Positions 1 to 62,943 of a stretch of DNA of 64,000 bases are shown piece by piece. Made by a program: the position numbers and the translations under genes. The stretch is from Brugia malayi. Its lineage: Eukaryota > Nematoda > Chromadorea > Rhabditida > Onchocercidae. The notes beneath the pieces are model-generated. The model ran no database searches, had not been told where the DNA came from, and worked only from the letters and a program-made list of their open reading frames with translations. The number at the start of each line of letters is the position of its first letter. Within the stretch, counting starts at the first letter, position 1. The DNA lies in contig NW_025062476.1 in the NCBI RefSeq assembly GCF_000002995.4, positions 1,917,001-1,981,000 of the forward strand, written 5' to 3'.

Positions 1-2709
1 AATTTTTTAATCTTCAGGGGATAAATCGACGAAATCAAACATATTTCTAAAACAAAAATGAATTGGCTTGTTAATTTTAGCTTTTTCCGCTTTAAAATTA
101 TTGGTTACAATCTTTTTTCAGTCATTTTCGATGGTATATTTGGTAAATTTAAGGCCTTTTAATGATTTTTAATTGAATTAGAAAAGAATTTTGTATTTGG
201 CATTTTGCATGACAATCGATGTGATTTTCCAATTTCTGTCAAAGATATTTATGCTCTCTACCTGAACTGTATACCTGTTTTGGGAGGATCAAAATTGTAT
301 CCATATCAGTGAAATCGGGAAGTTCTCTCGAATATAACTACACTTTTTATCTAATCAACATTTTTCAAAAAGGATTATTATTTATACAAATCAGGAAATG
401 ACTATTAACTTAAATTTACAGTTTACCAATGAAGAAGGTACTCAATGATGTGCTGAGATCCACTTCTAAAAAAAATACATTACAAACATTTCGACTCGAC
501 GTATTAACATAACGTTTTTACGTCGAAAGGCACACCTGTACTGCACAATTGAGTGACTGAGGTTAATACAATCCTATTAATTAATATCAATTAGTGCTAT
601 TTCACAAAGGTTTAATTTTGGAAAGAAATTATTTTCTAAAAGTGATCTTTTTCCAATCAAAGTTTAAATGTGAAACTTATCAAAATTAAAATTAATTGAA
701 TAAGAATGTAAAACAACTAACAGATGATCAAATGCATAATTAAAATGAATATTAACCATTGTTACACTGTGAATTTAGGAATAATTAGAGAAGATAATCA
801 GTATAGGATTCTTTGGTTTTATCTCAATTTAAATTTCTATTTTTAACAAAAGAGATCCAAGAAAAAAATATTGATTTGTTTACACATACGAGAGAATACA
901 TAAACACTGATTGTCTCTGTATGTATCACTTAATTAATACTTTTCACTTTCATACTCAGATGACTTGGTGTCCTGGCTATATTTGAAAAACTGCGAACTT
1001 TCATAAGCCCTTGGCCAAATAATGTGACTGAGTCGGTGGATTGTGATGGCATTAATCCAACTTTTCCATTTAAAGATGACACCGAACGTGACATCACGGT
1101 AGTTGCTGAGGAGCGACGTGCTGTCAATGATATTAAAACTGAATTATTTTACAAAATCCAAAGCAATTTTGAGATTTTACGCCAAAAAATAAACAAATGA
1201 ACAAACCATTTGTGTTATCAGCACTTAAACCAGTTGGAGGTTTTCCAGCTGAAGTTGTTGAACTTCTGCGACCTGTTGAAAGAGAAGATTTGGTTGTCGT
1301 CTGAGTGCTACCTCTGCGACTTGTTAATGGTAAGGTCCTGCTGACTGAAGATGTCGCTGGTGATGCTGTTGTTGTTGTTTTATGTTTTGTATCTACTGCA
1401 ATTTCAAAGAAAAAAAAATCGATATTTACCTTTAGATAACAAATCAATAGCACAATTGAAGCTGCTGAACTTTGCTTAACCTCTAGAATATATATATATA
1501 TATACTTACTCATAGCTTACTAACCAACTATTTAACTCCGTGGCTTACCAATCAATCGATATTTAATCAATCAGTGGACAATAATAATAATAAAAACAGT
1601 AACACTTACAATATCTGTTGTTTTGTGTGGTAGCTAATGGAAGTCGTGATTTTCGTTCTTCCACAGTAGTTCTAAAGTTACGTGGCATTGGACTTGGACT
1701 ACGCTGTGTGACAACAACTTGCGGTTGTGGTCGTACAATAGCCGTTTTGGAACGTTGTATATGTGTACGCCAAGGACCCTTATCTAAGTGACCATCGTTT
1801 TTGTCACTGAAAATGTTAAATTTTTAGCAGTGTACCATCAAATAAAAATAACTAGTATAAACATATAAACAAATCAGTAAATTAAAAAAGAAAGATAAAT
1901 TCACAGAACGAATTTTTTTGTTAAGCGATAAACAATCCTTCAAGTCAATTATTTTTAGGCCAATATTCATGATTGTCTAAGCCAGTATTTATATCTGATT
2001 ATTAGGCCATTATTCAATAACATACTTAATTCTCTTTTCACTTCTCAGGCATTTCTCTGAAGCATTACTGTCTGTTCCTTCGACAGTTGATTCCTTCTGA
2101 TTCCAAATCTCATTCTCCGCTTTTTGTTTCAATTCATCCGATTTATCATTCTTGTTTCGGGTTTCAGCTCGAGATAATTCACATGCATACTGGAAATCCA
2201 GTAGTTTGCATACAAATGTAAGCATTTTAGTTGGCTAAAGTTTCATAATGAGGATTAGTTTTAAAAAAAAATTTGAATATGAAAGAAAATTACAATAACT
2301 AAAAGTCTGAAAACTGTTCTCTATAAATACATACCGTTTGAATTAATTGTCGCGTTGATGAATTTTGCTCTTTGGAAAGCAAATCACGAATAATTCCTTC
2401 TACACGTAGCAAAATTTCCTCATCCTGGGGCAAATACAAATTTGCTTTTATTTTTGAAAGCATATGACACAATTGCAATCTGCAAAGTATTTTGTAAAAA
2501 GATCTTCAAAACTTTTTGAAATTTTAAATTTAAAAATCTCAAAAATAGGCAAAATATATTCTAAAATAATGCCTAACATTAAAGTCGACTAGAAGAATTT
2601 AAATCTTTAAAAAACACATACTAGAGAGCTAGAGCCAATAAGGAATTCAAAAATTGATTTTAACTTCAGATTTATTTACCTATTCTTACTTTATCAAATA
2701 TCATGTAAT
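1..2709. repeat. Segmental duplication, copy 1 (PPP4R4 3' end)
   Basis: This stretch is collinear with 19599-22308 in direct orientation. By eye I count about 20 base differences plus small indels, including a different (TA)n length near 1490. Similarity stops abruptly after 2709 (22308 in the other copy), inside what is an intron of PPP4R4. The left end lies outside the window, so the full size is unknown. It could be a recent segmental duplication or an assembly artefact from a second haplotype. Confidence 0.95.
930..2479 (-). pseudogene. Truncated PPP4R4 copy (last five exons only)
   Basis: The last five exons of PPP4R4 are repeated here: 2479-2335, 2189-2026, 1806-1610, 1395-1207 and 1120-930. 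Splice sites and phases match the parent and the frame stays open to the same stop. I see one replacement against the parent (Thr for Ile in the EGTDSN segment) and three silent changes. The copy lacks the upstream exon and every HEAT repeat, because the duplication ends in the intron just before. No start codon or promoter is obvious at the truncated end. It is therefore probably a non-functional fragment, although it could be expressed if joined to a new 5' exon between 2.7 and 4.6 kb. The open frame shows that the duplication is young, not that it is used. Confidence 0.8.
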
Positions 2710-19598: not shown

Positions 19599-22308
19599 AA
19601 TTTTTTAATCTTCAGGGGATAAATCGACGAAATCAAACATATTTCTAAAACAAAAATGAATTGGCTTGTTAATTTTAGCTTTTTCCGCTTTAAAATTATT
19701 GGTTACAATCTTTTTTCAGTCATTTTCGATGGTATATTTGGTAAATTTAAGGCCTTTTAATGATTTTTAATTGAATTAGAAAAGAATTTTTATTTGGCAT
19801 TTTGCATAACAATCGATGTGATTTTCCAATTTCTGGCAAAGATATTTATGCTCTCTACCTGAACTGTATACCTGTTTTGGGAGGATCAAAATTGTATCCA
19901 TATCAGTGAAATCGGGAAGTTCTCTCGAATATAACTACACTTTTTATCTAATCAACATTTTTCAAAAAGGATTATTATTTATACAAATCAGGAAATGACT
20001 ATTAACTTAAATTTACAGTTTACCAATGAAGAAGGTACTCAATGATGTGCTGAGATCCACTTCTAAAAAAAATACATTACAAACATTTCGACTCGACGTA
20101 TTAACATAACGTTTTTACGTCGAAAGGCACACCTGTACTGCACAATTGAGTGACTGAGGTTAATACAATCCTATTAATTAATATCAATTAGTGCTATTTC
20201 ACAAAGGTTTAATTTTGGAAAGAAGTTATTTTCTAAAAGTGATCTTTTTCCAATCAAAGTTTAAATGTGAAACTTATCAAAATTAAAATTAATTGAATAA
20301 GAATGTAAAACAACTAACAGATGATCAAATGCATAATTAAAATGAATATTAACCATTGTTACACTGTGAATTTAGGAATAATTAGAGAAGATAATCAGTA
20401 TAGGATTCTTTGGTTTTATCTCAATTTAAATTTCTATTTTTAACAAAAGAGATCCAAGAAAAAAAATATTGATTTGTTTACACATATGAGAGAATACATA
20501 AACACTGATTGTCTCTGTATGTATCACTTAATTAATACTTTTCACTTTCATACTCAGATGACTTGGTGTCCTGGCTATATTTGAAAAACTGCGAACTTTC
20601 ATAAGCCCTTGGCCAAATAATGTGACTGAGTCGGTGGATTGTGATGGCATTAATCCAACTTTTCCATTTAAAGATGACACCGAACGCGACATCACGGTAG
20701 TTGCTGAGGAGCGACGTGCTGTCAATGATATTAAAACTGAATTATTTTACAAAATCCAAAGCAATTTTGAGATTTTACGTCAAAAAATAAACAAATGAAC
20801 AAACCATTTGTGTTATCAGCACTTAAACCAGTTGGAGGTTTTCCAGCTGAAGTTGTTGAACTTCTGCGACCTGTTGAAAGAGAAGATTTGGTTGTCGTCT
20901 GAGTGCTACCTCTGCGACTTGTTAATGGTAAGGTCCTGCTGACTGAAGATGTCGCTGGTGATGCTGTTGTTGTTGTTTTATGTTTTGTATCTACTGCAAT
21001 TTCAAAGAAAAAAAAATCGATATTTACCTTTAGATAACAAATCAATAGCACAATTGAAGCTGCTGAACTTTGCTTAACCTCTAGAATATATATATATATA
21101 TATACTTATTCATAGCTTACTAACCAACTATTTAACCCGTGGCTTACCAATCAATCGATATTTAATCAATCAGTGGACAACAATAATAATAAAAACAGTA
21201 ACACTTACAATATCTGTTGTTTTGTGTGGTAGCTAATGGAAGTCGTGATTTTCGTTCTTCCACAGTAGTTCTAAAGTTACGTGGCATTGGACTTGGACTA
21301 CGCTGTGTGACAACAACTTGCGGTTGTGGTCGTACAATAGCCGTTTTGGAACGTTGTATATGTGTACGCCAAGGACCCTTATCTAAGTGACCATCGTTTT
21401 TGTCACTGAAAATGTTAAATTTTTAGCAGTGTACAATCAAATAAAAATAACTAGCATAAACATATAAACAAATCAGTAAATTAAAAAAGAAAGATAAATT
21501 CACAGAACGAATTTTTTTGTTAAGCGATAAACAATCCTTCAAGTCAATTATTTTTAGGCCAATATTCATGATTGTCTAAGCCAGTATTTATATCTGATTA
21601 TTAGGCCATTATTCAATAACATACTTAATTCTCTTTTCACTCCTCAGGCATTTCTCTGAAGCATTACTGTCTATTCCTTCGACAGTTGATTCCTTCTGAT
21701 TCCAAATCTCATTCTCCGCTTTTTGTTTCAATTCATCCGATTTATCATTCTTGTTTCGGGTTTCAGCTCGAGATAATTCACATGCATACTGGAAATCCAG
21801 TAGTTTGCATACAAATGTAAGCATTTTAGTTGGCTAAAGTTTCATAATGAGGATTAGTTTTAAAAAAAAATTTGAATATGAAAGAAAATTACAATAACTA
21901 AAAGTCTGAAAACTGTTCTCTATAAATACATACTGTTTGAATTAATTGTCGCGTTGATGAATTTTGCTCTTTGGAAAGCAAATCACGAATAATTCCTTCT
22001 ACACGTAGCAAAATTTCCTCATCCTGGGGCAAATACAAATTTGCTTTTATTTTTGAAAGCATATGACACAATTGCAATCTGCAAAGTATTTTGTAAAAAG
22101 ATCTTCAAAACTTTTTGAAATTTTAAATTTAAAAATCTCAAAAATAGGCAAAATATATTCTAAAATAATGCCTAACATTAAAGTCGACTAGAAGAATTTA
22201 AATCTTTAAAAAACACATACTAGAGAGCTAGAGCCAATAAGGAATTCAAAAATTGATTTTAACTTCAGATTTATTTACCTATTCTTACTCTATCAAATAT
22301 CATGTAAT
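19599..22308. repeat. Segmental duplication, copy 2 (within PPP4R4)
   Basis: Matches 1-2709. This copy is the parental context because the reading frame continues into upstream PPP4R4 exons beyond 22308. Similarity may extend to the left of 19599, which cannot be tested because the other copy runs off the window. Confidence 0.95.
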
Positions 22309-31789: not shown

Positions 31790-32066
31790 GAGCACTCGAA
31801 AGTAGTCAGTTACGCTTGAGTGGTTAATTACGTTTGGACGGTCAGTTGCGTTTAAATGGTCAGTTACGTTTGAGTAGTCAGAGATGTTAAGTGGTCAGTT
31901 ACGTTTGAGCAATCAGTTACGTTTAAGTGGTTAATCACGTTTGAGCAATCAGTGACATTTAAGTTAATTACATTTGAGCAGTCAGTTACGTTTAAGCGGT
32001 CAATTACGTTTGAGCAGTTAGTTACGTTTAAGTGGTCAATTACGTTGAAGCAGTCAGTTACGTTTA
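31790..32066. repeat. 18-bp minisatellite upstream of TSC2
   Basis: About 15 diverged units of CAGTTACGTTTGAGCAGT type (variants AATTACG, TTTAAG, GGTCAG). The period is mostly 18 bp, so one minus-strand frame stays open and reads as repeats of NVTDCSNVI. It ends about 300 bp before the proposed TSC2 start. GC content is higher than in the flanks. Confidence 0.92.
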
Positions 32067-32373: not shown

Positions 32374-35300
32374 ATGATAGCACTGCGAGACAACATTATC
32401 TTTTTTATTGATGAATTTAACAATAAGGATTTGAGAGGTACGCATGCGTTCGCGATTCCGACTCCGGTAGGCATGCCGTTATCGAGGCGAAGCTTCCTTT
32501 CAGCAGTATTCAGTCGGAAAGACAACGATGATATTCAACATTTCCTTAACAGGTTATTGCACTGTTATTTGTTTAGAATTGTGAACATTTAATTCTCTTT
32601 TCTGATCACTCCCACGAATAAGATAACACTAATATCTAAGAATTTTATATTAACTTTGTTCAGGTGGGTTTTGATTGTTATGAAGAAATCATCCGATTAT
32701 TTTATATTTCATATCTGCAATTTCAGTGAAGGTTCGATTAGTCAAGCAGCATGGTTTGAATTAGGATGTGGTAGTTCGTTGTCTACTCGGATGAAGGCAA
32801 TGGAGCAATTAGAGTCGGTACAATTTACTTAATTATCAGTCAGCTTATCTGAATAGTTGTTTAAAGAGGGATAAGATAGATTTAAATTAGGCTCATTTAA
32901 ATTAAATCTCAAGTTCTTCAATTACTGCTGCCTTGCAAAATTCTAAGCTTTCTAGTTATAAGTAGCTGACTTAAGAGTTTAAGAATTTTTAAAGTTTTTT
33001 TACCTCCAAATTTTGTAGCAAAATCCATGACTTTGAAATGTTTAGGAAAAGGGAAAAATTGCTTAAAGCTTTATCATAGAACTTACTAGATCGTTAGAGG
33101 CAGACGACTACAAATAAGCACCGTTGAAGCTCTATATCATGAGACCAAAGATCTATACGAAGTGGATGAAGCAAGGGATTCGTTCTTAAAAACATTTATT
33201 ACCCTCACTGAATATCAACTGGATCAACTCGGTTTGGCAATGCGCGACACATTTTTTTCCGTGGGTGATTTCACTTCACTTAAATTTTGTGCTTTTTTAG
33301 TAATATATAAACAAACTTAACATTATGTTGATATACGAATTTTATGGACACTTCTAAAGGATTCATTAAAAATTTTTTAGTTAATCCGTTCAATGGGTCT
33401 CAGTGATTTATCTTTGGAGTGGTTCATAGCTCTGTCAGTGAATGGCGATAAAGTAGCAGGTTTTGAATACGACTTCATGAGCCTTCAGCTTAATTGGCTA
33501 CGAGAAGTGCTAGATCTAAATAAGGTGGATCATCGACATGCTATCCGAGTACTTCAACTCACACAGCAAGCCATAAAGTTCGGCTGACATGATTGCATAA
33601 AATTTCTGTTTTGGAACAATAGGATTCATAAAAACATGTCTTTATAATTTTTTCACTTTTGTTGCAATTTGAACGGAGTTTTACTTCTGAAGTATATATT
33701 TTTCAAATAAGCTCGTGTTTTAAGAAATTTAAAGAGAAGAATTCAAACTTATCTTTTGCTGGTTGCTTTTAAAACTTCTAATTACGTGCCGCTTACTATT
33801 AGTGATTTTTTTTTATTTCCAGAACAAATGCTGGTTTTATTACAAATAAGGAGATTGATGAAATTGTTCATAATATTTGCTTAAGAATATGTCGTAAGGC
33901 AGATCATTTGACATACGAATGTTTATTATTACTAGGAATTATTTTAAAATATGGGTATGGCTATTTTTTCCATTTCTTTTTTCAATCCATTTTTTGCTGG
34001 TTTTCTATTAATCTGCTATTAGTACAAAAAAAAAAAAAAAAAACGGTTTATAGAAATACGGTATTATTGGTCAAAATTGTCAGCTAATATACTTAGCAGA
34101 TGTTTTATTTAAAATTACCATCCACTTAGTTACAAATGTTGTAATATAATTTATTATTTACAGTCGCATCCCAGATACGAAGTTGCTGATATTAATAACA
34201 ACATTGTGTTCGGTAATGAATGAACAGAAATGGGGTTCCACTGCATGGAACGTAATGAGAGGTTTATTGGGATCTCATTATGGTCATAATGTTATAAAGC
34301 TAATGCTTGATTTATTAAAAGATAGCGTCAATTGTCCGAAAACACAGGTTCTTGTAGGTGCTATATACTGTATACATACCGCTCTCTGGAGTCAGCAAGT
34401 AAGCTTCCTTTTCCGTTTATCATTTATGTAATATAATTTTGTTTATAACAGATTAAATAACAAGATTTTTCTTCTCTTTCTTTCAGTATTAATAGATTGG
34501 CTGGCAGTGTTCAAGATTTTTATTTAATGAGAATATGGTACATTTCGGAATGTTTCTCTTATTCATAGCTACAATTCTGATAAGTAACAGATATGAAGAG
34601 AAAGTAAAGCAATTTAAATCGTATAAGGAGTAATATTTGCAAGGCAACATTTTCTGTGATCTGAAATAGTGAGTGAATTTGAAAGCATTTGGTTTATTTA
34701 ACAGAATATTGGTAATTTACGCTGTCATCCAAGTGTTGCTCTTCCAAATATGTTGCCAGCAATGGAAGCAGGTCCTGAAGTTGTGAATGAAGTGTTGATT
34801 GCCATCCGACGGTTACTGAATGCCAGTGGAAAAAATCTACAGCAGCTGAGTTGGCACTGTATCTTGCAACTCCTTAAACAGGCTTTAAAGCTTTGTGAAC
34901 AGGTATTTATCATTGTGTTCCAGTTTTAGTGGTTTGCATATTTCGCTGAAATTTCTGTCAGCTACTTAAAAATTATCTAGTTTTTTCTTTTTTATTTTGA
35001 CGGTTTTATATGACAATTTTTATTAATAGAACAGAAAATCGAAGTTTCGATTGTGAGTGAATAATGAAAAAAGTTAGTGAAAAATGAAATCAAGTTTAGT
35101 CCAAAGCAAAAATTAGATATTTTTAAATTGTTTAATAGATATCATGGAAAGGAAAAGTTAGAGAGCAGCGATCACGTATTCATCATTTACTGAGCATTAT
35201 TGAGAATTTATATCATGATGGTAACTATGGTGGCTCCTCCGAAGCGCTGTATTCACTGATAGAAAGTTATATCGATGAACGTCCTGTTACAAGCATCATA

Positions 35301-38300
35301 GCATTATTTGATTACCGTGTAGCTGTAAGTTTTTTTTTTTTCTTGAATTTCGACATTTTTTATAGGACAGTTAATAGTATGATCGAATGTTATATTGTAG
35401 TTAATTAACTGTTATACAATCTAAGGTGGTCATTTCCTCATTGTAACTAAATGAACTCTACAATAAATCTTTTTAATTGTTTGCATTTTGAAGTGTTTGG
35501 ATCCCTTTATATCAAATTGGCTTCACACTCTTCAACAACTTGTCCAAAAGCATCTTCAAGACAACTACCCTTCTGCAGTTAGGTTCGTTAGTAGCTTTAA
35601 TTTCATGACTTTATGTTTCGGCAGAGCCTTTGAAGATTTTTAATGTATGAATCCTGTCATTATTGAGTTACTTATAGTTACTGGTTGATAATTTAAGGGA
35701 GAAAGCTGTTAGCGTCCTGCACACTGTTTATATGAAGTACCACTGGCTACATGAGAGAGCAGTTGTTACAGATTTAGTTTGTCCTATACTTAGAGGTTGT
35801 ATTCGTGAAAATAATGCCAAAATTCAGGTTTGTTTATTAATATTTTATCCAGTAAATAATTTGTCCCACTAAATTTTAAAACAATTAGCTGTAGGAATTT
35901 AAATAAGCTGTATATCAAGATCTAAAATATTTCATATCTAAGAATTTATTTGATCAGTTGCTCTCCAGACAAAGCGTATGCTATTTGGTTAGAATATAAC
36001 ACTCAAAAGATTCAGAAATGATTGTCTATATGTATTCTCAAGTTTTGGAAAAATTTATTTTAAATTTTAGTATCAAATGTTAAATGTTTTATTTGATGTT
36101 GCAAAAACGGTATCTTTACGTGAATCCGAAGATGATGACCTGTTTTTAATGGTAATGGAGATAGCCAATTCATTTCTTGCACTTGATCTCGACACTGCAG
36201 GTCTATGATTTCAAGGCTAATTAGCTCAAATTTCAAGCAAGACTAATTAGGACTCTAACATTTTTAAGTTCATGCAAATGAAACGGTGAAGAGTATTTTG
36301 TCTGTTACTTTGAGATTTTTTCAGAGGTAAAATTTTGAGGAAATTTCATCATATACCATTTACACAGTCCATTTCAGAAGTTTTTGAAAATATGGAAATA
36401 TTGACGGGGGATGTATGCCAAGTTTTAGCTGAACGTTTTTCTGATTTGCGAAGCTCTCATCTTCATTATATCATACATATACTTTGTGAACATCTTCATT
36501 CCCACTATCAACATGGACTTGTTCGCGAAATTGGTTGCGAAATACGGGAGCGCATATTTTCCGCATTATTGACTCTTGTTTGTAATCCACCTTCAGAGCA
36601 AATGGGTGTGTATATCATTTTCTTATCAGTTTTTTTTTTTTTTTAAATTTTACAAAGGGACAAATAATGAATTACGGAAACATGCTTAATTGTGCTGCAG
36701 TTGTCGACAGAAGGTACTCTTGATTATTTCTTGAACGCAAGTTACAGTTCTTTACATTTAATTGTAGTGTTTAAAATCTTCAAAGCTAATCCGTTTGTGT
36801 TCATCAAATACTTTGCTGCAGTTTGTATTGGTGAGTTTGATGACGTAACTAATGTACGAATATGTCGTGCTGGAGGTGATACTAATGGAAATTTTAAGTG
36901 GAGCGAAATATGCGTAGTGGTGACAAGAGCTATTGAAGAGGAGCTCTGGTAATTTCTGACTTTATTTTAATAAAATCTCAATCATTCATTGAACATTTCA
37001 TTGAATAACTAACATCATGAATGTTTTTAAAACCGGGTTGTTTACTCATATAGATATAGGTTATTTGGGTTGCTTACCGTGACAAATAAACTGTTTATAC
37101 AATCTAAGCTGGTAATCGTATCATATATGATTTCGAAGACAGTAAATAACATTTGTGCAGTTGCTTAAAACTTTTTTCCAGTGTTCTTAAAATATTATTT
37201 CAGGTTCCCGGTTATGAAAATAATTTTGCAACGGTTGTGTCGAATAGTAGAAGTGCGAGATTTGATTTTTACAGCGGGTACTGAACGCATAGAAAAACTT
37301 AAAAACGCTATAATTGCATTATATCACAAGTTTGTTTTGTAATTTATCAAGCCCGATCTGAATTCTTTTTTGTATTTTGTCATTTTCTGTGTTTTTTTCT
37401 TTTTTTTTTTTTGATATAAAAAGGGTTGCCGAAAAGTCGCTGCTATTTTAAATAGATATATGAAAGACAAGAGTATTGCTTGATTCTAACGAGTTTTAGA
37501 ACAAATAATTCGCATTCTTATCCTTTGTAAATTGAAGGTTATCTTAGTGGTGTTATGAATACTTTCATCCTTGTTGCAGGCGTAACACTTTGCTTTCTGA
37601 TGCCGATTTAACTATAAATCCATCACATAAGGGCGAAGTTGACCTACCGAAATATATTTGTCCTATTTTTAGTCGTCTAATTAATTATTATCATGATGAA
37701 AGTATTTGTAAAATTATGGTTGATTGCGTTCCTTCTCTTCCAAGCGGATGTCAGCAGGTATTGTGATGTTGAGGGTATTTTTTGTACCTTATGGATGAAT
37801 TATTTCTCATTGTTTATTTAGTTCATTTCTTCAAATGAATCTTAATTTTTTTCAGCAGCCAAAATTACATGGAGATAATCGTATGTTCTTCTGGAGTTAT
37901 AAAGAATATTAAAAAACATTTTTCAGGCAATAATGGCCTGTGACCTAGCAGTGCAGGTGCTGCCTGATTGTATGGCACCATTAGCCCGACAGTTAATATC
38001 CCATTTGGCAAGTCTTCATCCAAGTGCAGTTCTTGCTATCCCTATTATCGAATTAGCTTCGGACTGTTCCTCAGTGCCAGAGTTTTATCAATTTTTTGAG
38101 GTTTTGTTAATTGTAGACTTATTTTTGTTTTTCTTTTATATTCCACTTTCGTTGTTTTTGGATGTTTTTCCTAATTTTGTCTTTTCTGCTAACTTTACAT
38201 TGTAAAAAATATAATTAGGTACTAGGAAGACATTTTACTTTGATGAATATTTATATTAAAAAGTTTATATTGAAAAAAAAAAAGCCTCATTTCGTATTTC

Positions 38301-41300
38301 ATAACGTTTAAATATATCTGTGAAATATTTTTTGTATTTTTTTAGATTTTTTTGTTCAGCAATTGGATTGTTAAACTTGTGCAGTTGGAAAAAGCAGTAT
38401 AGAAACTTATATAACTATTAACGAAAAGCAGAATATTTTCACTCATTTTGATAATCAATTTAAACTGCAGATCAAGCATTTCAAATTTGTTATTGATATA
38501 CTGGCATCGTATACAAACGTTCATCGATATAACACATTTATTGTTGCTGCTGCGTTTCGTACACTAATGAGATGGTATACAAAAATGTCAGATGCAGTAA
38601 AACCAACGATATGCAACTATATTATAAATAAGGTATAAGAAAGTTTTTCTAAGATATAACCAGAAAAAATTAACCAAATTTTTACTTTCACATTCTTATT
38701 AACCTTGAAGTGTTTTGTAGATTGAAGAAGAAGCAAAAACTTGTCTACCGAACGTCATAAATGCCAAAGAGCATTCAGATGAACGGCAATCGTCTGATTC
38801 TGGCACACCAACCACTGCTGCCTTTTCCTTTGGTTCAGCTAATCGGAAAGACATGATTATAAATGAGGATACTAATATGAGAGATGAGGTTTGTTTTTCA
38901 ATGTTCGATTACTGTTTTCCTTTTACAGTTATGGAACCATTTCAAGAATCTAAATATTGAACAATTTGAAAATGCCTGGAAATGTGGGCCACATGAATTA
39001 TGTTAATTTATCCTTTTTTTAAGTTTCTGTTAATGTTATAGTTGGCTGAAGAAACAATTAAAGCACTGAAAACATTCATGAAACACAGCAAAATTAGTGA
39101 CGTAGCGCCCACTCAATCGATGCCAAATACAAAACTAGTGGAGCGCTGGTCAAACCATTGGGTTATTAATGATGTAGTTATTTCTGTTACCAGTTTTACT
39201 GAAACTCTATCAAGTGGGACAAGTAAGATGTTCGAATTGGGTAAATAACTGCTTGTTGTTTAGGTTTATTAGAACAGAAAAGATCTCAGTAAAGCACTTA
39301 TTTTGTCATGCTTTTTTAGAATTCCCAAGAGCTTGTCATTATAATAATGCAATTTTTCTACAATACCTTTAATTTATTTTGTTTGAGGAGGTTATTAGAT
39401 AATTCTTGAATAGATGAAGATTGATTTTTAGATAGTGGTGAAGAAAACCCATCAACGGAAATACCAGATAGAGAGATATCAAGTTTTGACAGGAGACGGC
39501 GTCATCAGTCAGCAATCCATCGCCCAAACGAGTACTATTCTTAATTTTTTGTTATTTATAAACTATAAATCAAGATAAGGGTATATGTTTATTTTCAAGG
39601 AAATATGTAGCTCCTTACCGTCCAACTCTGGATGACTTATGCACAGTGGCGAAATATGAATCGAAAAAAGTTCGTGTTCCGGTGGTGACGTGGATTCAGG
39701 TTGTTGTACGGCATATACTTGGTAAATATTCATGGTATATGCGATCACTAAAAGATTTTCCTGATGATTTTGGAGCAGGTTGTTTTTGGAATATTTATTC
39801 AATATCAATTTTATACGAATAAAAAAAAATGAAATGATAATGAAATTTTGTTCATCTTGATCTTTGTGCCTCAAGAACTAATACATACAATCAAGTAGCA
39901 TATTACTTTTCGTAATTTTTAATGCAAATAGCGTTTTTGAAAAGGCCAAACTGATTGAGTAGTTTAGACCAAAAATATATCGTATCATGAGACTATCATT
40001 TTTTTAATTCTTTTATTGAGGTTCATTGATTTTGTGTTGCTAAATGATTGTAGAAATGAAAATAAATTCATGCAATATTAATCTGTAATGTATATTTTAG
40101 CAGACAATTTTTATGGTATTGACGAGGGATTATCGATTTTAAAACTTCTCGTTGATGATAACAAAGCTGTTCAGATATCAGTTCGTGATAAGAACAAAAC
40201 GTATGACCTCATTGTTTTCAAGATTTCGCAGCTTCCTTCGAAAAACCAGAAAACCTTCGATAATACTACAATTATATGTTTATAGAAGATTTTTTATAGA
40301 TTGAGATCTTTGCGCAATATTGATCGGATATCATCACTTGAATTGCACACCGTTGGTGTTGTCTACGTAGCCCATGGGCAGACTAAGGAATCCGAAATTT
40401 TGGGGAATGTTTATGGTTCGGCGCGTTACTCTAGTTTTTTAAGGTATCTTTTGCTTAACATTCGTGATTGAAATATTGAATATTCAAGCAAATTGTAGTA
40501 TTTTGGAATTTTAGGCTTCTAGGCGAACCAATATCTCTGGAAGATTGTCCAGGTGGTCTTGCAGATGGTTTCTGTGGGACATTTACATACGTATATACGG
40601 ATGAGATTTCGAAAACCGTTTTCCATGTGGGTATGTTATAGTTAAAGTGTTATAGTTAAATTCATAAGGTGGATTTCGTATTAAATGAGTTATTTGTCAT
40701 ATACACTGTAAAAAATGAAATTTAAAATGTCGAACATATAGGAGAATATCATGAAGTTTGCTCAAATTTTTGGATCACATCTAAAATAATGATTTACTTT
40801 AGCAACTCTAATGCCAAAAAGCGAAATTGACCCGCTTTGCAACTGCAAGAAAAAGTTTATTGGAAATGATTTTGTTTCGGTCGTCTTCAACGACAGTAGC
40901 TCGCCCTATGTCCTTGGAACAATTAGTGGAAAATTTGCACATGTCGCTTTGGAGGTAATTGAATTTCGTTTTACTTTTGTTCGTACTTTTTTAAAAGAAA
41001 ACGAAAAGAAGAAGGTTCTGGATTTTAAGTAAAACTTTAAAATACTTGAGAAATAGAAAATTATACCTGGCGTTAAGCAAATCTTAGTGCTATAACTTGT
41101 ATTCGTAGGTAGTACCACAAGATAATGAGCATTTGTTGGTAACTGTCCATGCGCGTAAAGAAATTGCATTATGGTTGGCAATCTCACGCGCTTTTTTACC
41201 GGATCAACAGGCTGCTGTTCTTATACGGAAGCTAATCTTACGGGCACAACTATCAGTGAATGTTTGGAGACGTGAAGAGGAGGAAAAAGGGCCACCCTAC

Positions 41301-41369
41301 ATTGGACTCGTTGTTGAACGATTACGGGCAATTCGGGCACTTGCTGCACATGCTACACCTATTTCATAG
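32374..41369 (+). CDS. TSC2: Tuberin, GTPase-activating protein for Rheb
   Basis: About 27 exons, near 1400 residues (human 1807). With TSC1, tuberin switches off Rheb and so TORC1. N-terminal HEAT-like helices (32.4-38.6 kb) include WNVMRGLLGSHYGHN and DLIFTAGTERIEKL, like human WKLMRNLLGTHLGHS and KVLIFTSPCSVDQL. The Rap/Ran-GAP domain uses exons 40300-40443, 40515-40630, 40803-40954 and 41109-41369. It contains HVATLMPKSEID and IGNDFVSVVFNDS, which holds the asparagine-thumb Asn. The long phospho-linker of the human protein is mostly absent, but RRRRHQS near 39500 fits an Akt RxRxxS site. Exon 1 (32374-32552) joins in frame; its Met could also be 32471. Most phases check, but the join 36269-36326 to the exon ending at 36605 is unresolved: no acceptor gives an open frame. 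Confidence 0.93.
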
Positions 41370-49512: not shown

Positions 49513-52254
49513 TCACAACACAATTTTATTCAAATTACTAAATCCGATACCCATACAAGTCATCAGTACCTTCTCATTAGAGCCCAATCTCTGTTCTTTA
49601 TCATCGCATAGCTCATCCCAATGGTCTATTTTGAATGTTATTTCGAAGTATTTCTTCAAATTCCGCAATGTGTACATACTGAAAAAAAAAATATATATTA
49701 AAAAGTACAGAAGAGGTCTTAATAAAATTATAAGCAAATCAGTCTGCACGCGCTAATCCAATTACTTGCTTAATTTTAGTGAGAACAAATGATAATTAAA
49801 TTGTCACAACAGCAATACTGGATGCCTGTTGACAATGTTCGTAACAAAGTTTGAGCTTCATATTGCAGAAAACTACGGTGTAAGGTAATGGAAAAATTTT
49901 TTCTTCATAGTAATACTCGAGAAAGAAACCAGAACTATGGATATGTTCTATATCTGAAGAAGATAAGGTAGCATTTGACATATTTCCAGGTAAGTAAACC
50001 AACAAACCAGTAAGCAGAGAGAGGTCCAAACAGATATGTACTAACATCCTTTTCGCAAAGCGTCATAAAAGTCACAGCTAAGGCTTGAGCTGTGGTGTCA
50101 ACACATCCTCCCTGGAAATATAATTATTAACTAAATTATGTAAAATGAGAGTATCATTTTTTCAATACAATTTATCAGTGAGAAGAAACGAAACTAACTG
50201 CAAAGATCTGATCCAACAACTGGCATGCAGCAACGTGTCCAACGTCTTCCGGCACAACTGGGTTGCCTTGTTCATCTTTCGGTTTTGATACGGCTTCACC
50301 ATGATAAATTATTCCTTCCGTTGTTTCACTAGTTAAAAAAAGACCAAAGCCAGGTGAACTAAAGAACCAATCATAATTATTCGGACAAAAAAGGTAGAAT
50401 TTTAAAAATTCATTTTTTTTTTTTTTGAATAAAGAACTATTGACAGCTATTAAAGAGCTATTTGTATTCAGACATCTACTATTTTATATTTGTCTTCCCA
50501 CTTTTTATTCTATTCCCTAACAATGAAAGTATATGTTGCTGATCTGCAGAACCATAAAAATCACTAAAAAAGAGTCTAAATTTATTTGCAAAAAAAATCA
50601 TATCGAATATACAACACTGACTGTCCTCAAAGTTCTGAAATGCTTGAACAAAGAAAAAATTCTTCAAGACAAGAAAAGCTAAAAAATGGAATAATACCAT
50701 ACTTTCCACCAGATGCTCCTTTTCTCTGATCAACAGTGATATAAATATCAGCAATGTAATCGCGAAGAGTGTGCTTTGCTGCATCAATCATACGATATGC
50801 TATAGATGGAGAAACTTTGGAAACAGACGCAATCCCTCGTATTTTACATATTTTTCCAACTGTTTTACACTAAATTATAGCAAAAAAAAATACAAAATTT
50901 AAGTAATTATAAGGTTTATCATTAAATATTTAAGCATAATGTTTATCATTAAAAATTAAGAAACAATGAACAAACAAGATATAAAGACAATCGTGTAATT
51001 GTATTTATGAAGAAGCAAAACTACGGGATGTCTCCGAATAAGAAAAAAATAATCTTATAGTAAAAACCTGCATTAAAAAAGATACCTGTACAGGACGAAA
51101 GGTTCTTATTGTTGGTAAAGTCAAAATTACACATCCACCACCGTCGGGTTTGTAACCTCGAGCAGTAATCTAAAGTTCGAAATTTCATTTCCCTAACAGA
51201 TTACAGCACAATGATATTAAAGTTTTCATACAGATAATACTATCAAAAATTAAATAACAATGGTAAGGATAGAACGATACTAGAAACAGATCAAAAATGA
51301 ATCAAAATAATGCTGAAACAGATTAATTCAAATAAATAAATGAACCTTAATTTCTGGCACATCAGATGCAAACACAAATTTATTGAAAACCGGAAGCCAC
51401 GTTGCACGAATGGCATCGACACTTAACTCACATGGAGCGTTGGTTATTCCTTCTAGTTTTACGTTAAGTGGATACTTACAAAAAGGAGCAATCATTAACA
51501 AAGGTTCCAGGTAGTAGCTGAAAAAATATATATATAATAATTCTATGAGGAATGATAGAAGAATGAGATGCTGAATATCAGTGACAAAGATGCAAACATT
51601 AAATGAATTTAAATTTAAATAAATTTAAATCTAAAAATATGAGAACCGGCCAAAAACAACCTTATGCATCGGTCATTGCCACAATCGAAAGTAAGTTTGC
51701 CACCCGTGATCATACCAGGTGAGAATGTAACTTCAGTACCTGGAACGGAAAAATTAAAGTCAAAGGTGTAGATAAAAAGTGTAAATTAAAAAAAGTAAAA
51801 GCTAGGCTAAAAAAATTAAACCTGTTTGACTGATTTTAATTCGTGTGCCATTGGTTATCTTTTCCAACATTAACAGAAGTTTTGACTCGAAATCTAAATG
51901 AACAATTCGGTGTTTTTTTTTTTTTCAAAAGGAAAGAACAATGGTTAGAAGAAACTGTAGTTTAAAAATTTTTAAATCGTTGGAATTTCAAAAAAAAAAA
52001 AATCAAACCAAGTTTTAGAATTATTATCTATTACTGAAATTATCTCTTACTGGAAAAAATATCAAGTTATTCGTCAAAGAAATAAATTAAATTATGTGAA
52101 ATATGACGTCAAATGAGAACGTACCTTTTATTCCTGGTTCATCATCATAACGACGTATCTCTGAAATGGTCACCGAGTGACCACTTAGCAATGAATAAGC
52201 AAGTCGCTGTCTGAAGAAGTTGCATCCCTCAAAACGTAATTCTTTCTGCTCCAT
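49513..52254 (-). CDS. RCL1: RNA 3'-terminal phosphate cyclase-like protein
   Basis: Nine exons join in phase to 377 residues (human RCL1 373): 52254-52125, 51893-51822, 51739-51661, 51517-51346, 51169-51086, 50869-50703, 50358-50199, 50111-50008 and 49678-49513. RCL1 works in the nucleolus with BMS1 in early 18S rRNA processing and resembles RNA cyclases without being one. Motifs in order: FEGCNFFRQRLAYSLLSG, GYKPDGGGCVILT, the SPGFGLFLTSET stretch, GGCVDTTAQALA, YLFGPLSAY and the C-terminal MTCMGIGFSNL. The position of the cyclase catalytic histidine is in the FGPLS region, which has no His, as expected for the RCL1 branch. It is the most upstream gene of the candidate operon, with 0.8 kb to the divergent gene at 53.08 kb. 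Confidence 0.95.
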
Positions 52255-56770: not shown

Positions 56771-57924
56771 TACTCCTATGGATTATCTCTTTTAAAGCCA
56801 TATCTTAATCAAATTTACAAATTCAAAAAATTACCCTTATTCGATTCCTTCAACAATTTGGTTGTCAAGAAGTCAATTCATCGCAATCTAATCATTACAT
56901 TTTTACAGCTATCGTACAACTGATATGGCCAATCAGTGATTATCGCACAGAGCCAAGAAACTACTGGGGGACTTGGCCATCGGTAATATTGATCTTTTGT
57001 TATAGCAATCAACATCCATCCAAAGAGATAAGTATTTATTTTTTTACATATATTACTAGGCATATTTTCAAATGCAAAATTTTAACATTATTCAATTAAA
57101 CAAAGTTTAAACTTACTTTCTACCAAATTCTGAGTTACTTTTTAGCCTAATCTTATTCCAATTAAAAATGAAATTTTTAATTTTTAATTGTATCACGATG
57201 GCTCATCATTCAAGCATTACTATATTGTTGAATTGCGCAAAATGGGCGCTTTTGACATAAATTCTAGAACTTTCGACTACCTTTATCAAATCTTACTTAC
57301 TAATTGCTATTTTATCAAAAATGAATAATGAATGTGTAAAATTTTTAATCAAAATTTAATTTTTTAATTGAAATTTTTTTTTTTTACAAAATTAAATAAA
57401 TTGAAATGATAAAAATATATACATTAGCTTACAATGAAACAAAAAAAGAAAAAAAAAATTGAATTAATAGAAATAGATTGAGAATGTTTGAATAGATAGA
57501 GCTAAACTTATTTACTTTTCATTGTATTTTGCTCATTAATTTCTATAAACGAATTAAAAATTAAAGAAATTTAAAGTTCAAACACAGTAATTTTAAACAA
57601 AAGAAATGTGAAATTCTATTTCTTTCATAAAAATTAATCTTTTGAATTTCATTTTTACATCTTTCCAACTTTACAAATTTCTCAGCGAAATATCTAATAA
57701 TCTTTTCAAAACAATTTTTTGCCATTTTTCACTTTTTTTTTTTTTTAAATATCAAAATTGACAATATCAGATGACAATTGTTTCTAAATGATTTCTATTA
57801 TCAATTTTAGCTGAAATAAATTGAATACAAAAAGAAAAAAATGCATAACAAATAGTACAGTATTAGCATATTATCATTTTCAAAAATTTCTATAAAAAAG
57901 TATCATAATGATATTTTCTGGTTG

Positions 57925-58380
57925 ACAATAGCTGAATGACAATATTAGAATGACAATATCAAAATGACAATATCAGTTGACAGTATCAAAATGACAATAT
58001 CAGTTGACAATATCAGAATGACAATATCAGTTGACAATATCAGAATGATAATATTAGAATGACAATATCAAAATGACAATATCAGAATGATAATATTAGA
58101 ATGACAATATCAAAATGACAACATCAGAATGACAATATCAGTTGACAATAGCAGAATGACAATACCAGAATGACAATATTAGAATGACAATATCAAAATG
58201 ACAATATCACTTGATAATATCAGAATGACAATATCAGTTGACAATATCAGAGTGACAATATCAGTTGACAATATCAGAGTGACAATATCAGTTGACAATA
58301 TCAGAGTGACAATATCAGTTGACAATATCAGAGTGACAATATCAGTTGACAATATCAGAGTGACAATATCAGTTGACAAT
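57925..58380. repeat. TGACAATATCAG minisatellite
   Basis: About 35 copies of a 12-14-bp unit (GACAATATCAGTT, GACAATATCAGAG, variants with AAA or TTAGAA). They settle into a regular 27-bp dimer from about 58235. The regular part is open in frames on both strands (TISVDNIRV and LILSTDIVT repeats). It stops about 15 bp after the stop codon of the cysteine-rich gene at 58395, so it forms that gene's immediate 3' flank. Confidence 0.95.
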
Positions 58381-58394
58381 AAAAAAAAATCCAT

Positions 58395-58660
58395 TTATGT
58401 TCTACGACCAGCAGAGTACTCTTTAAGTACATAATTAAATAAATCCATACAACTACCATTAAAATTAACATTTGGTAATTTTGGAATGTTATTTTCACGA
58501 CAAATTCTTAGAAATATCCTTTTTGCAACATAAACACAATACGGGCAATCATCATCGTAGCAGTAAACATTGCATCGTTTTCTTGCGCACGAATTCATGT
58601 GAAGCGCATCTTCTATGAAACATTGCTCCAAACAAGTTTCAATTTTTGGACATTCCATTT
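58395..58660 (-). CDS. Cysteine-rich small protein, first exon not found
   Basis: A terminal exon with ten cysteines begins after a strong acceptor (poly-T, then CAG at 58661). Its first ATG is three bases in. The pattern reads CPKIETCLEQCF, then CARKRC, NVYC, CPYC and later single cysteines at IC and SC, about 87 residues. It matches the neighbour at 59.9-60.8 kb in its opening (there CGKLVHCTIKRCF) and in the central Cys spacing, so the two look like tandem paralogues. I could not find an upstream exon with a signal peptide. Either it lies farther right, or the acceptor is a trans-splice site and the protein starts at this Met and is not secreted. Function unknown. Confidence 0.7.
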
Positions 58661-59872
58661 CTGAAAAAAAAAAAGCAAAAGCAAAAGCAAATAGTAAATG
58701 TTAAACTTTGTTATATGAGTTTATGAAATTTGATATTACATAATTTAATAAAAATTTAAAAATTTACATTTATATTTAATATATTTATATTTTTTCAAAT
58801 TTTAGCTAAAATTTTAGGTTTTTTTTTTTTTTTGAGAATAAATTAAAAAATATTAAATATAAATTCTTATTTATTACTATATTGCTAATTCATTTATTAC
58901 TTTTTTTAAAAAATTTTAGGTTTTTTTTTTTTGAAAATAAATTGAAAAATATTAAATATAATTTTTCATTTATTACTTTTAATTATTAAATATAATATAT
59001 ATATATATATAAGTAATTTTTCTAATTGTTAAAACTTTCCTCATTTATTACTATACTTTTTTCTTGTTCTTTGAATATCAATATTTTATCGCTAATTTTA
59101 TGATATGTTTTTGCACTTAGCTAAAAAAAATTTTTTTTTAAATTCTATTCTTTTTTTTAAAAAAAAAAAATTTAAGTTTTCCAACTTTTTGTATGCCAAA
59201 AATATTCAACGATGTTAGTTAGATAAATTAGCAAATAAAATGGATTAAGCTAGATTTTTTTTTTTTTTTAATTCAAATTTAATGCAAATTTAAAATGAAT
59301 TTATTGAGTATTAACTATTTGTTAGCAAATTTACACAAAAACTGAGAGGGAGAAAGAGAGAGAGAGAGAGAGAGAGAAGGAAAGAATAGGACAGAAAATT
59401 CATTCATGTAAATTTCTTTACATAATTTAATTTCTCGTTAACTCAATTTATACAATTGTATCGAATAAAGTTTAAACTCGATTTTGATTTAATTAAAAAA
59501 TTGAAAAAAACATCCATAATTTTTTTTTTTTTAATTTAAATCATCTGATAAAATTTGACAAGAATTACATAGCTAATTAAACTTATTCCCGTTTAAAAGT
59601 ACCAATCAGTTTTTTAAAAAAAAAAAATTTAAAAAATAAAACTATTAGTTTTTTTTTTTTTTTTTTTTTAAATAGCAAGATAGCTTAAAATTAAATGTAA
59701 TTGCATACATTGAAAAAATGAACTATGATCATTGATTAGACTAAATGAACAAAAATTAGAATCATTATCAGTTCAATTGATAAGAGCTAATGATATTATC
59801 AGTAATACCAATGGTCAAGATTGACTATTTGAATTGTTTTGAAATGCATAATTTGGAATCAAATTTTGTTAA
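58661..59872. other. AT-rich spacer between two cysteine-rich genes
   Basis: Many poly-T and poly-A runs, a (TA)n run near 58995 and an AG microsatellite at about 59346-59377. No exon recognised. Confidence 0.6.
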
Positions 59873-60824
59873 TTAATTAAAAATATCACTCAAGATAGTA
59901 CTTGTTTTAACACCAGAGGTAATTTTAGATATCTGATCCAAGGCATAATTGCATTGCTCGCATGCAGTGCATGCATCATGGCATTTTGTTGCAAGGCAAA
60001 CAAAACTGAATTGATCAACCATTGCTGAAAACATGCCAACAGCACTCATCGTATGCATTGCTGTCTCGGTTTTTTCTGAAATTATAAATGCAATATTTTT
60101 GTAAGTTGTAGAAATGCATGCAGTCAGGATTGCTTGCACTAAAATGCAAATATTTTTGTAAGTTGTCGAAATGCATGCAGTCAGGATTGCTTGCACTAAA
60201 ATGCAATATTTTTGTAAGTTGTCGAAATGCATGCAGTCAGGATTGCTTGCACTAAAATGCAATATTTTTGTAAGTTGTAGAAATGCATGCAGTCAGGATT
60301 GCTTGCACTAAAATGCAATATTTTTGTAAGTTGTAGAAATGCATGCAGTCAGGATTGCTTGCACTAAAATGCAATATTTTTGTAAATTGTAGAAATGCAG
60401 TTATGTTTACTTGTACTAAAATGCAATATTTTTGTAAGTTGTCGAAATGCATGTAGTCAGGATTGCTTACACTAAAATGCAATATTTTTGTAAGTTGTAG
60501 AAATGCATGCAGTCAGGATTGCTTGCACTAAAATCAATTTGAATTTAATTTATCTGAACCAATCTATAGTTTATCAACTTATCAGCATCAAATTATCAGT
60601 CTCACCTACTATTAACTTTATAAATTGTCGTAATTAGATATCTTTCAATCATTACCGATCATTTCCATTTCAAATATTTTATTAATTATTTTTTAAAAAA
60701 AAAGCTAACCTGTAGAGAAGCATCGTTTAATAGTACAATGCACAAGTTTTCCGCAAGAATTAGCATCAGCTAACGAAGAAGGTATAATGTCGCACAGTAT
60801 GATCAAAAAGGTTAGTTTTAGCAT
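59873..60824 (-). CDS. Secreted cysteine-rich small protein
   Basis: Two exons, 60824-60710 and 60075-59873, join in phase to 105 residues. The chain starts MLKLTFLIILCDIIPSSLA, a clear signal peptide, then SCGKLVHCTIKRCF, a Ser/Met/Ala-rich linker, and CLATKCHDACTACEQC. Eight cysteines follow the signal region (C-x5-C-x4-C, then C-x5-C-x3-C-x2-C-x2-C). An upstream in-frame Met exists at 60839, but TATTTCAG directly before 60824 looks like a trans-splice or UTR acceptor, so I prefer the shorter start. The protein is probably exported and disulfide-bonded. The only intron contains a 56-bp minisatellite that reaches almost to the acceptor. I do not recognise a named family; the gene at 58.4 kb appears related. 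Confidence 0.82.
60088..60535. repeat. 56-bp minisatellite inside an intron
   Basis: Eight units of 56 bp (ATGCAATATTTTTGTAAGTT, then GAAATGCATGCAGTCAGG and TTGCACTAAA), nearly identical; one unit near 60390 is shortened. Each full unit contains TGCATGC. The minus strand is open in more than one frame, and because 56 is not a multiple of three the frame changes from unit to unit. It lies 13 bp from the 3' splice site of the host intron. Confidence 0.96.
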
Positions 60825-62640: not shown

Positions 62641-62663
62641 TTCAAATGGTATAGCATTAAGAA

Positions 62664-62943
62664 ACAATGCTAATGATAATACTAATAATGGTTATGATGA
62701 TAATAATGATAAATGATAAAGAAAACAATGCTAATGATAATACTAACAATGGTTATGATGATAATAATGATAAAGAAAACAATGCTAATGATAATGCTAA
62801 CAATGGTTATGATGATAATAATGATAAAGAAAACAATGCTAATGATAATACTAACAGTGGTTATGATGATAATAATGATAAAGAAAACAATGCTAATGAT
62901 AATACTAACAGTGGTTATGATGATAATAATGATAAATGATAAC
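62664..62943. repeat. 54-bp minisatellite, about five copies
   Basis: Unit AAAGAAAACAATGCTAATGA with ACTAACAATGGTTATGATGA and TAATAATGAT. Because 54 is a multiple of three and the unit lacks stops in several phases, repeated frames are open on both strands (for example KENNANDNTNNGYDDN on plus and IIIIIITTVS on minus). The frame has no gene context. Confidence 0.94.

What the first reader, a model, noticed from the sequence alone, without database searches (positions are those of the whole stretch)
32374..41369. Tuberin (TSC2) in a probable nematode
The frame keeps the helical N-terminal part and an intact Rap/Ran-GAP domain with IGNDFV. C. elegans is known to lack TSC1/TSC2, so a tuberin here means the TSC arm of TORC1 control was kept in this lineage, if the host is a nematode. 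The protein is several hundred residues shorter than human tuberin, mainly in the phospho-linker.
Basis: partly seen in the sequence, partly recalled or inferred. Interest (0 to 1): 0.8.

Follow-up and report, generated by a model that had tools for sequence, protein, structure and literature searches.

The report
Tuberin (TSC2) gene of Brugia malayi
The stretch is a complete, ordinary tuberin (TSC2) gene of the filarial worm Brugia malayi, whose genome also carries the partner gene TSC1 and the target Rheb; that spirurid worms keep this growth brake although C. elegans lost it was published in 2014.

Summary
Window 32374-41369 (+) holds a 26-exon gene, introns GT-AG, giving 1,383 aa with no internal stop. 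Pfam finds the three tuberin domains (DUF3384, Tuberin, Rap_GAP). The best solved structures are human tuberin, in three long stretches; RalGAP-alpha2 and Rap1GAP match only the GAP part. The Asn motif IGNDFV is intact.

The host is Brugia malayi: a database protein named B. malayi BM9251 (UniRef: Hamartin) lies on a contig of 24,943,668 bases, exactly the length of contig C139 here. The same genome carries TSC1, a Rheb gene and a separate RalGAP-alpha-like gene. Ten nematode TSC2 clusters were returned by two searches.

The claim is not new. PMC3969279 (2014) reported Tsc1 and Tsc2 in spirurid nematodes, lost together elsewhere. One small addition: the shortened linker keeps one Akt-type motif (RRRHxS), present in 10 of 11 nematode rows. 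It was not tested as a phosphosite.

The parts
32374..41369 (+). TSC2 (tuberin) gene of Brugia malayi, 26 coding exons, 1,383 aa
   Evidence: splice model; identity
32374..32552 (+). exon 1 (start Met; relatives P0002-P0004 start at the Met that is residue 34 here)
32727..32817 (+). exon 2
33090..33260 (+). exon 3
33381..33577 (+). exon 4
33823..33954 (+). exon 5
34164..34398 (+). exon 6
34705..34902 (+). exon 7
35139..35324 (+). exon 8
35494..35582 (+). exon 9
   Evidence: 3' edge set after P0001
35698..35827 (+). exon 10
   Evidence: 5' edge set after P0001
36071..36200 (+). exon 11
36378..36605 (+). exon 12
   Evidence: 5' edge set after P0001
36822..36948 (+). exon 13
37204..37329 (+). exon 14
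37580..37757 (+). exon 15
37927..38100 (+). exon 16
38471..38632 (+). exon 17
38721..38888 (+). exon 18
39042..39240 (+). exon 19
39432..39531 (+). exon 20
39600..39778 (+). exon 21
40101..40200 (+). exon 22
40300..40443 (+). exon 23
40515..40630 (+). exon 24
40803..40954 (+). exon 25
41109..41369 (+). exon 26 with stop TAG 41367-41369
32779..35568 (+). span coding DUF3384 (PF11864, N-terminal tuberin helical part), introns included; coordinates worked out by hand
   Evidence: 2.9e-49
36890..38584 (+). span coding the best stretch of the Tuberin domain (PF03542), introns included; coordinates worked out by hand
   Evidence: 6e-34
39491..39511 (+). RRRRHQS, Akt-type RxRxxS motif (Ser1060) in the short linker
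   Evidence: motif in 10 of 11 nematode rows
40397..41261 (+). span coding the Rap_GAP domain (PF02145), introns included; coordinates worked out by hand
40865..40867 (+). codon of the Asn in IGNDFV (aligned with the Asn of LGNDFV of human tuberin; its role as catalytic 'Asn thumb' is recalled)
   Evidence: alignment; codon read

Best explanation
This is the intact TSC2 orthologue of Brugia malayi, the only Tuberin-domain match found in its genome. Its product most likely pairs with the TSC1 (hamartin) encoded elsewhere in the genome. Through its Asn-containing GAP domain it speeds GTP hydrolysis by Rheb and so restrains TORC1, as in flies and mammals. Shown here: the gene, its domains, the Asn motif, the presence of TSC1 and Rheb genes, and conservation in related nematodes. 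Inferred: complex formation, GAP activity on Rheb, and control of TORC1. The one Akt-type motif left in the linker may carry insulin/Akt input (inferred, weaker).
For: 26-exon open model, 99.5% identical to the B. pahangi protein. All three tuberin Pfam domains. GAP domain 123 bits to tuberin against 70 to RalGAP-alpha2 and 56-58 to Rap1GAP. One Tuberin-domain match at E <= 0.001 among 5 candidates scored in the genome, and it is exon 12 of this gene. Hamartin hits on C139, with a 960-aa draft matching Pfam Hamartin at 6.1e-50 and human hamartin at 5.7e-30. Rheb at C135:7258248-7259083, four joined pieces 128.5 bits to Rheb against 88.7 to Rap2A. TSC2 returned for other filariae, Parascaris, Ascaris and Syphacia. 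TSC1 and TSC2 present or absent together among nematodes according to PMC3969279.
Against: No expression, binding or enzyme data. A TBC1D7 query found nothing, but it was recalled human sequence without a positive control, so it shows nothing; PMC5745459 calls TBC1D7 vertebrate-specific. The TSC1 draft's C-terminal coiled coil aligns to human hamartin only insignificantly (1.1 bits), though it contains a recognisable LLYER segment. A second locus, C139:5091716-5092441, also matches the Rheb query at 47-48% and was not classified. Vertebrate Akt-type motifs at frog 935 and 1423 have no RxRxxS/T counterpart here, and in that alignment the worm motif does not line up exactly with the frog pair at 1089/1091.
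Confidence: 0.93

Rival explanations
1. The gene is a RalGAP-alpha/beta, RapGAP or SIPA1-type GAP rather than TSC2.
For: It shares the Rap_GAP domain; RalGAP-alpha2 matches the GAP part at 70 bits. PMC5839386 says that RalGAP (HGAP-1/2) was described as TSC-like in C. elegans (passages).
Against: Tuberin and DUF3384 domains are present; RALGAPB_N is only at E 0.6, below its cut-off. Human tuberin matches in three long stretches. A distinct RalGAP-alpha-like gene is at C137:8882373 and a Rap1GAP-like gene at C138:5810483.
Confidence: 0.02
2. It is a TSC2 orthologue by descent, but works without TSC1 or on a substrate other than Rheb.
For: No interaction was tested; the TSC1 coiled coil is diverged.
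Against: TSC1 and Rheb genes are both present; TSC1 and TSC2 loss is correlated among nematodes (PMC3969279).
Confidence: 0.05

Closest known systems
Human tuberin/TSC2 (PDB 7dl2, 9ce3)
   Same: Matched in three long stretches covering the N-terminal, Tuberin and GAP parts; GNDFV motif
   Different: 1,383 aa against 1,692-1,792 in the solved chains; judged on frog tuberin, most of what is missing lies in the linker before the GAP domain, and the motifs at frog 935 and 1423 have no RxRxxS/T counterpart
Tuberin of other nematodes (P0001-P0008, P0016, P0017)
   Same: Brugia pahangi 99.5%, other filariae 74-87%, Parascaris 52% over the aligned part; Ascaris and Syphacia also found
   Different: Nothing essential seen; the Ascaris model P0016 carries no precomputed Rap_GAP domain and has gaps in the GAP region, probably a gene-model fault
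RalGAP-alpha2 (PDB 9qwp)
   Same: Rap_GAP domain with a GND motif
   Different: No match outside the GAP part; a separate RalGAP-alpha-like gene exists in this genome
Tsc1/Tsc2 of spirurid nematodes as reported in PMC3969279 (2014)
   Same: The very claim of the finding: spirurid nematodes keep Tsc1 and Tsc2
   Different: The passages I read do not name B. malayi among the Tsc-positive species; Figure 7B and Table S4 were not seen

Membership tests
TSC2 / tuberin | N-terminal DUF3384 plus Tuberin domain | tested here: met
   (2.9e-49 and 6e-34, both over the curated cut-off)
TSC2 / tuberin | C-terminal Rap_GAP domain with Asn in GNDFV | tested here: met
TSC2 / tuberin | closer to TSC2 than to RalGAP-alpha or Rap1GAP | tested here: met
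   SIPA1 has no chain in these lists and was not compared directly
TSC2 / tuberin | partner TSC1 encoded in the same genome | tested here: met
TSC2 / tuberin | substrate Rheb encoded in the same genome | tested here: met
   (partial exon set)
TSC complex | third subunit TBC1D7 (vertebrate-specific according to PMC5745459) | tested here: inconclusive
   empty, no positive control; 28 TBC-domain exon matches exist and were not classified
TSC2 / tuberin | GAP activity on Rheb; binding to TSC1 | not testable with these tools
   needs biochemistry
RalGAP-alpha/beta | match outside the GAP domain, or RALGAPB_N domain | tested here: not met
   RALGAPB_N E 0.6, below cut-off; RalGAP-alpha2 on residues 1177-1340 only; RalGAP-beta has no chain in the list

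The most novel reading that the evidence does not exclude
In these nematodes the TSC2 linker has been cut down to a single Akt-type switch (RRRHxS, Ser1060 here), so insulin/Akt input to TORC1 runs through one site instead of the several found in vertebrates: a minimal natural version of TSC2 regulation.
Probability: 0.25. Interest if true: 0.4.

Novelty: already known. Interest (0 to 1): 0.15.

Why it matters
C. [quoted passage not shown] That bears on how these long-lived parasites regulate growth and autophagy, and on how far C. elegans results carry over. PMC3969279 already drew attention to the link with long lifespan. The present result adds a checked full-length gene model and the conserved linker motif.

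Tried and rejected
RalGAP and RapGAP identity: rejected and by the separate loci. The SIPA1/RapGAP-like reading of the C136:10860606 locus is from eye and recall, not searched.

Stop between exons 22 and 23 (TAG 40283-40285 in the same frame, seen): looked like a possible pseudogene mark, but a GT-AG intron 40201-40299 removes it, and the 4 of 4 relatives printed show the same join.

Horizontal transfer or contamination: not pursued. Identity falls from B. pahangi (99.5%) through other filariae (74-87%) to Parascaris (52%) ([quoted passage not shown] No tree was built here.

TBC1D7: one search without result, uninformative. Rfam on the window at gathering thresholds: 0 matches. No structure was predicted. 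Nematodes that the two TSC2 searches did not return could not be surveyed; the absence in Caenorhabditis is taken from PMC5745459 (passages) and PMC3969279 (section 11 and passages).

Paper searches on whether this is in print. The deciding paper is PMC3969279. PMC5839386 and PMC10154236 were read as passages only.
Full report
Observation. After comparison with the database protein P0001 of Brugia pahangi, three exon edges were moved (end of exon 9, start of exons 10 and 12), giving 1,383 aa without internal stop, 99.5% identical to P0001 along its 1,383 aa. An in-frame TAG at 40283-40285 lies in the intron between exons 22 and 23. The start codon remains the least certain point, since P0002-P0004 begin at the Met that is residue 34 here.

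Identity. Pfam finds DUF3384 (2.9e-49), Tuberin (6e-34) and Rap_GAP (3.4e-28), each over its cut-off; RALGAPB_N is at E 0.6, below its cut-off. Against solved structures the best match is human tuberin (7dl2, 6.8e-102, 345 bits; 9ce3, 7.2e-97), in three long stretches of 7dl2; RalGAP-alpha2 (65 bits) and Rap1GAP (51-53 bits) match the GAP part only. With the GAP part alone the order is tuberin 123, a GTPase activator-like protein (6ssh) 94, RalGAP-alpha2 70, Rap1GAP 56-58 bits. IGNDFV aligns with LGNDFV of human tuberin. In the frog row P0018 the same place reads VGNNFV.

Host. The genome behind the window has 86.8 Mb in 139 contigs. A TSC1 draft from its contig C139 (24,943,668 bases) hit P0021, named 'Uncharacterized protein BM_BM9251 [Brugia malayi]' (UniRef: Hamartin), at 97% identity; its longest contig is also 24,943,668 bases. 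Brugia malayi is a spiruromorph filarial nematode. The host question is therefore settled.

Pathway. Hamartin (PF04388, asked at E <= 10) rings at C139:21628139-21633082 with three colinear pieces, best E 6.3e-7, two of three over the cut-off. A 960-aa draft joined from 21 exon peptides of L012 (edges approximate) matches Pfam Hamartin at 6.1e-50 and human hamartin at 5.7e-30 over residues 6-265. Of the 38 proteins returned for it, 14 are named nematode hamartins or their fragments (filariae, Parascaris, Dracunculus), one comes from an unnamed source, and 23 are from fishes. The coiled-coil half aligns to human hamartin only at 1.1 bits. Rheb: two exon pieces at C135:7258248-7259083 match a recalled human Rheb at 44% and 54%; three weaker matches, one at C135:2252842 (37%) and two at C139:5091716-5092441 (47-48%), were not classified. 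Four joined pieces of the first locus score 128.5 bits to Rheb, 95.7 to RhebL1 and 88.7 to Rap2A, the best 60 of 367 matches being shown. The eight Rap_GAP exon matches in the genome fall into four loci: TSC2, a RalGAP-alpha-like gene, a Rap1GAP-like gene, and one that by eye looks SIPA1/RapGAP-like (not searched). The Tuberin domain gives one match at E <= 0.001 among 5 candidates scored, exon 12 of this gene. TBC1D7 was not found, with a recalled query and no positive control, so this is not evidence of absence; PMC5745459 calls TBC1D7 vertebrate-specific.

Distribution. The first protein search returned 15 proteins: 8 nematode TSC2 clusters (Brugia pahangi, Elaeophora, Cercopithifilaria, Onchocerca, Dirofilaria twice, Acanthocheilonema, Parascaris), 5 proteins with the three tuberin domains (four named as arbuscular fungi, one an unnamed JGI record), one Pythium Rap_GAP protein and one cockroach RalGAP-alpha2. 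One Dirofilaria entry is named 'Tuberin', the other is misnamed 'Heterogeneous nuclear ribonucleoprotein Q'. The search with an alignment returned 12, of which 9 are nematode, two of them new (Ascaris, Syphacia), with a frog tuberin, a fungal tuberin fragment and a RalGAP-type protein. That makes 10 nematode clusters; that all belong to the Spirurina is recalled for Ascaris, Parascaris and Syphacia. The searches are word-limited and say nothing about nematodes that were not returned.

Linker. Against frog tuberin the worm protein lacks segments of 29, 97 and 175 aa between frog residues 1090 and 1452, and 29 aa near 642. RxRxxS/T motifs: frog has five (935, 1089, 1091, 1423, 1758); the window protein has two, RERIFS 641 in the helical part and RRRHQS 1060 in the linker. 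The worm motif lies near the frog pair 1089/1091 but is not aligned exactly with it. Of 11 nematode rows (window plus 10, two of them Brugia and two Dirofilaria), 10 have the motif at the 1060 column; the Ascaris model P0016 has no sequence there. With P0016 left out, 25 of 186 linker columns (905-1090) are invariant in the 10 rows, and the two best 8-residue windows (6 of 8 invariant each) are those holding RRRHQS. P0006 has gaps in this stretch, which lowers the counts. That Akt uses RxRxxS/T and that vertebrate tuberin is controlled through such sites is recalled. Whether Ser1060 is phosphorylated is unknown.

Mechanism. Most likely TSC2 joins TSC1 and acts as the GAP for Rheb, holding TORC1 down when growth signals are low. 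The parts list is shown; the actions are inferred from the family.

Literature. PMC5745459 (passages) states that TSC1 and TSC2 are absent in five Caenorhabditis species and that neither Rheb nor TSC is found in six flatworm species. [quoted passage not shown] it also points to the long life of spirurids. This is the finding's claim, dated 2014. PMC5839386 (passages) notes that RalGAP (HGAP-1/2) has been described as TSC-like in C. elegans.

Verdict. A correct reading of an ordinary orthologue whose presence in this group is already published. The gene model, the finding of TSC1, TSC2 and Rheb genes in one genome, and the conserved linker motif are modest additions.

Noticed in passing
window 1-1837 and 19599-21436: A direct duplication of at least about 1.8 kb, copies 19.6 kb apart, 92-100% identical in the four blocks reported; the first copy starts at the window's edge and may reach further. 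Nature unknown.
   Followed up: no
window 31800-32066: Tandem array of a 36-base unit (7.4 copies, 80% matches) ending about 300 bases upstream of the TSC2 start codon.
   Followed up: no
window 57923-58381, 60086-60538, 62662-62936: Three further tandem arrays with units of 14/27, 56 and 54/108 bases.
   Followed up: no
window 50175-51624 (-): Exons of an RNA 3'-terminal phosphate cyclase-type gene (RTC and RTC_insert).
   Followed up: no
window 58395-58700 (-): Exon matching DUF5332, family of unknown function, E 2.2e-27.
   Followed up: no
P0006 (Dirofilaria immitis): A database TSC2 protein named 'Heterogeneous nuclear ribonucleoprotein Q' by its source, evidently a naming error.
   Followed up: no
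L012 1435-9631 (C139:21627434-21635630): The B. malayi TSC1 gene (approximate coding span of my draft); its product is 'uncharacterized protein' in the NCBI name and 'Hamartin' in UniRef.
   Followed up: yes
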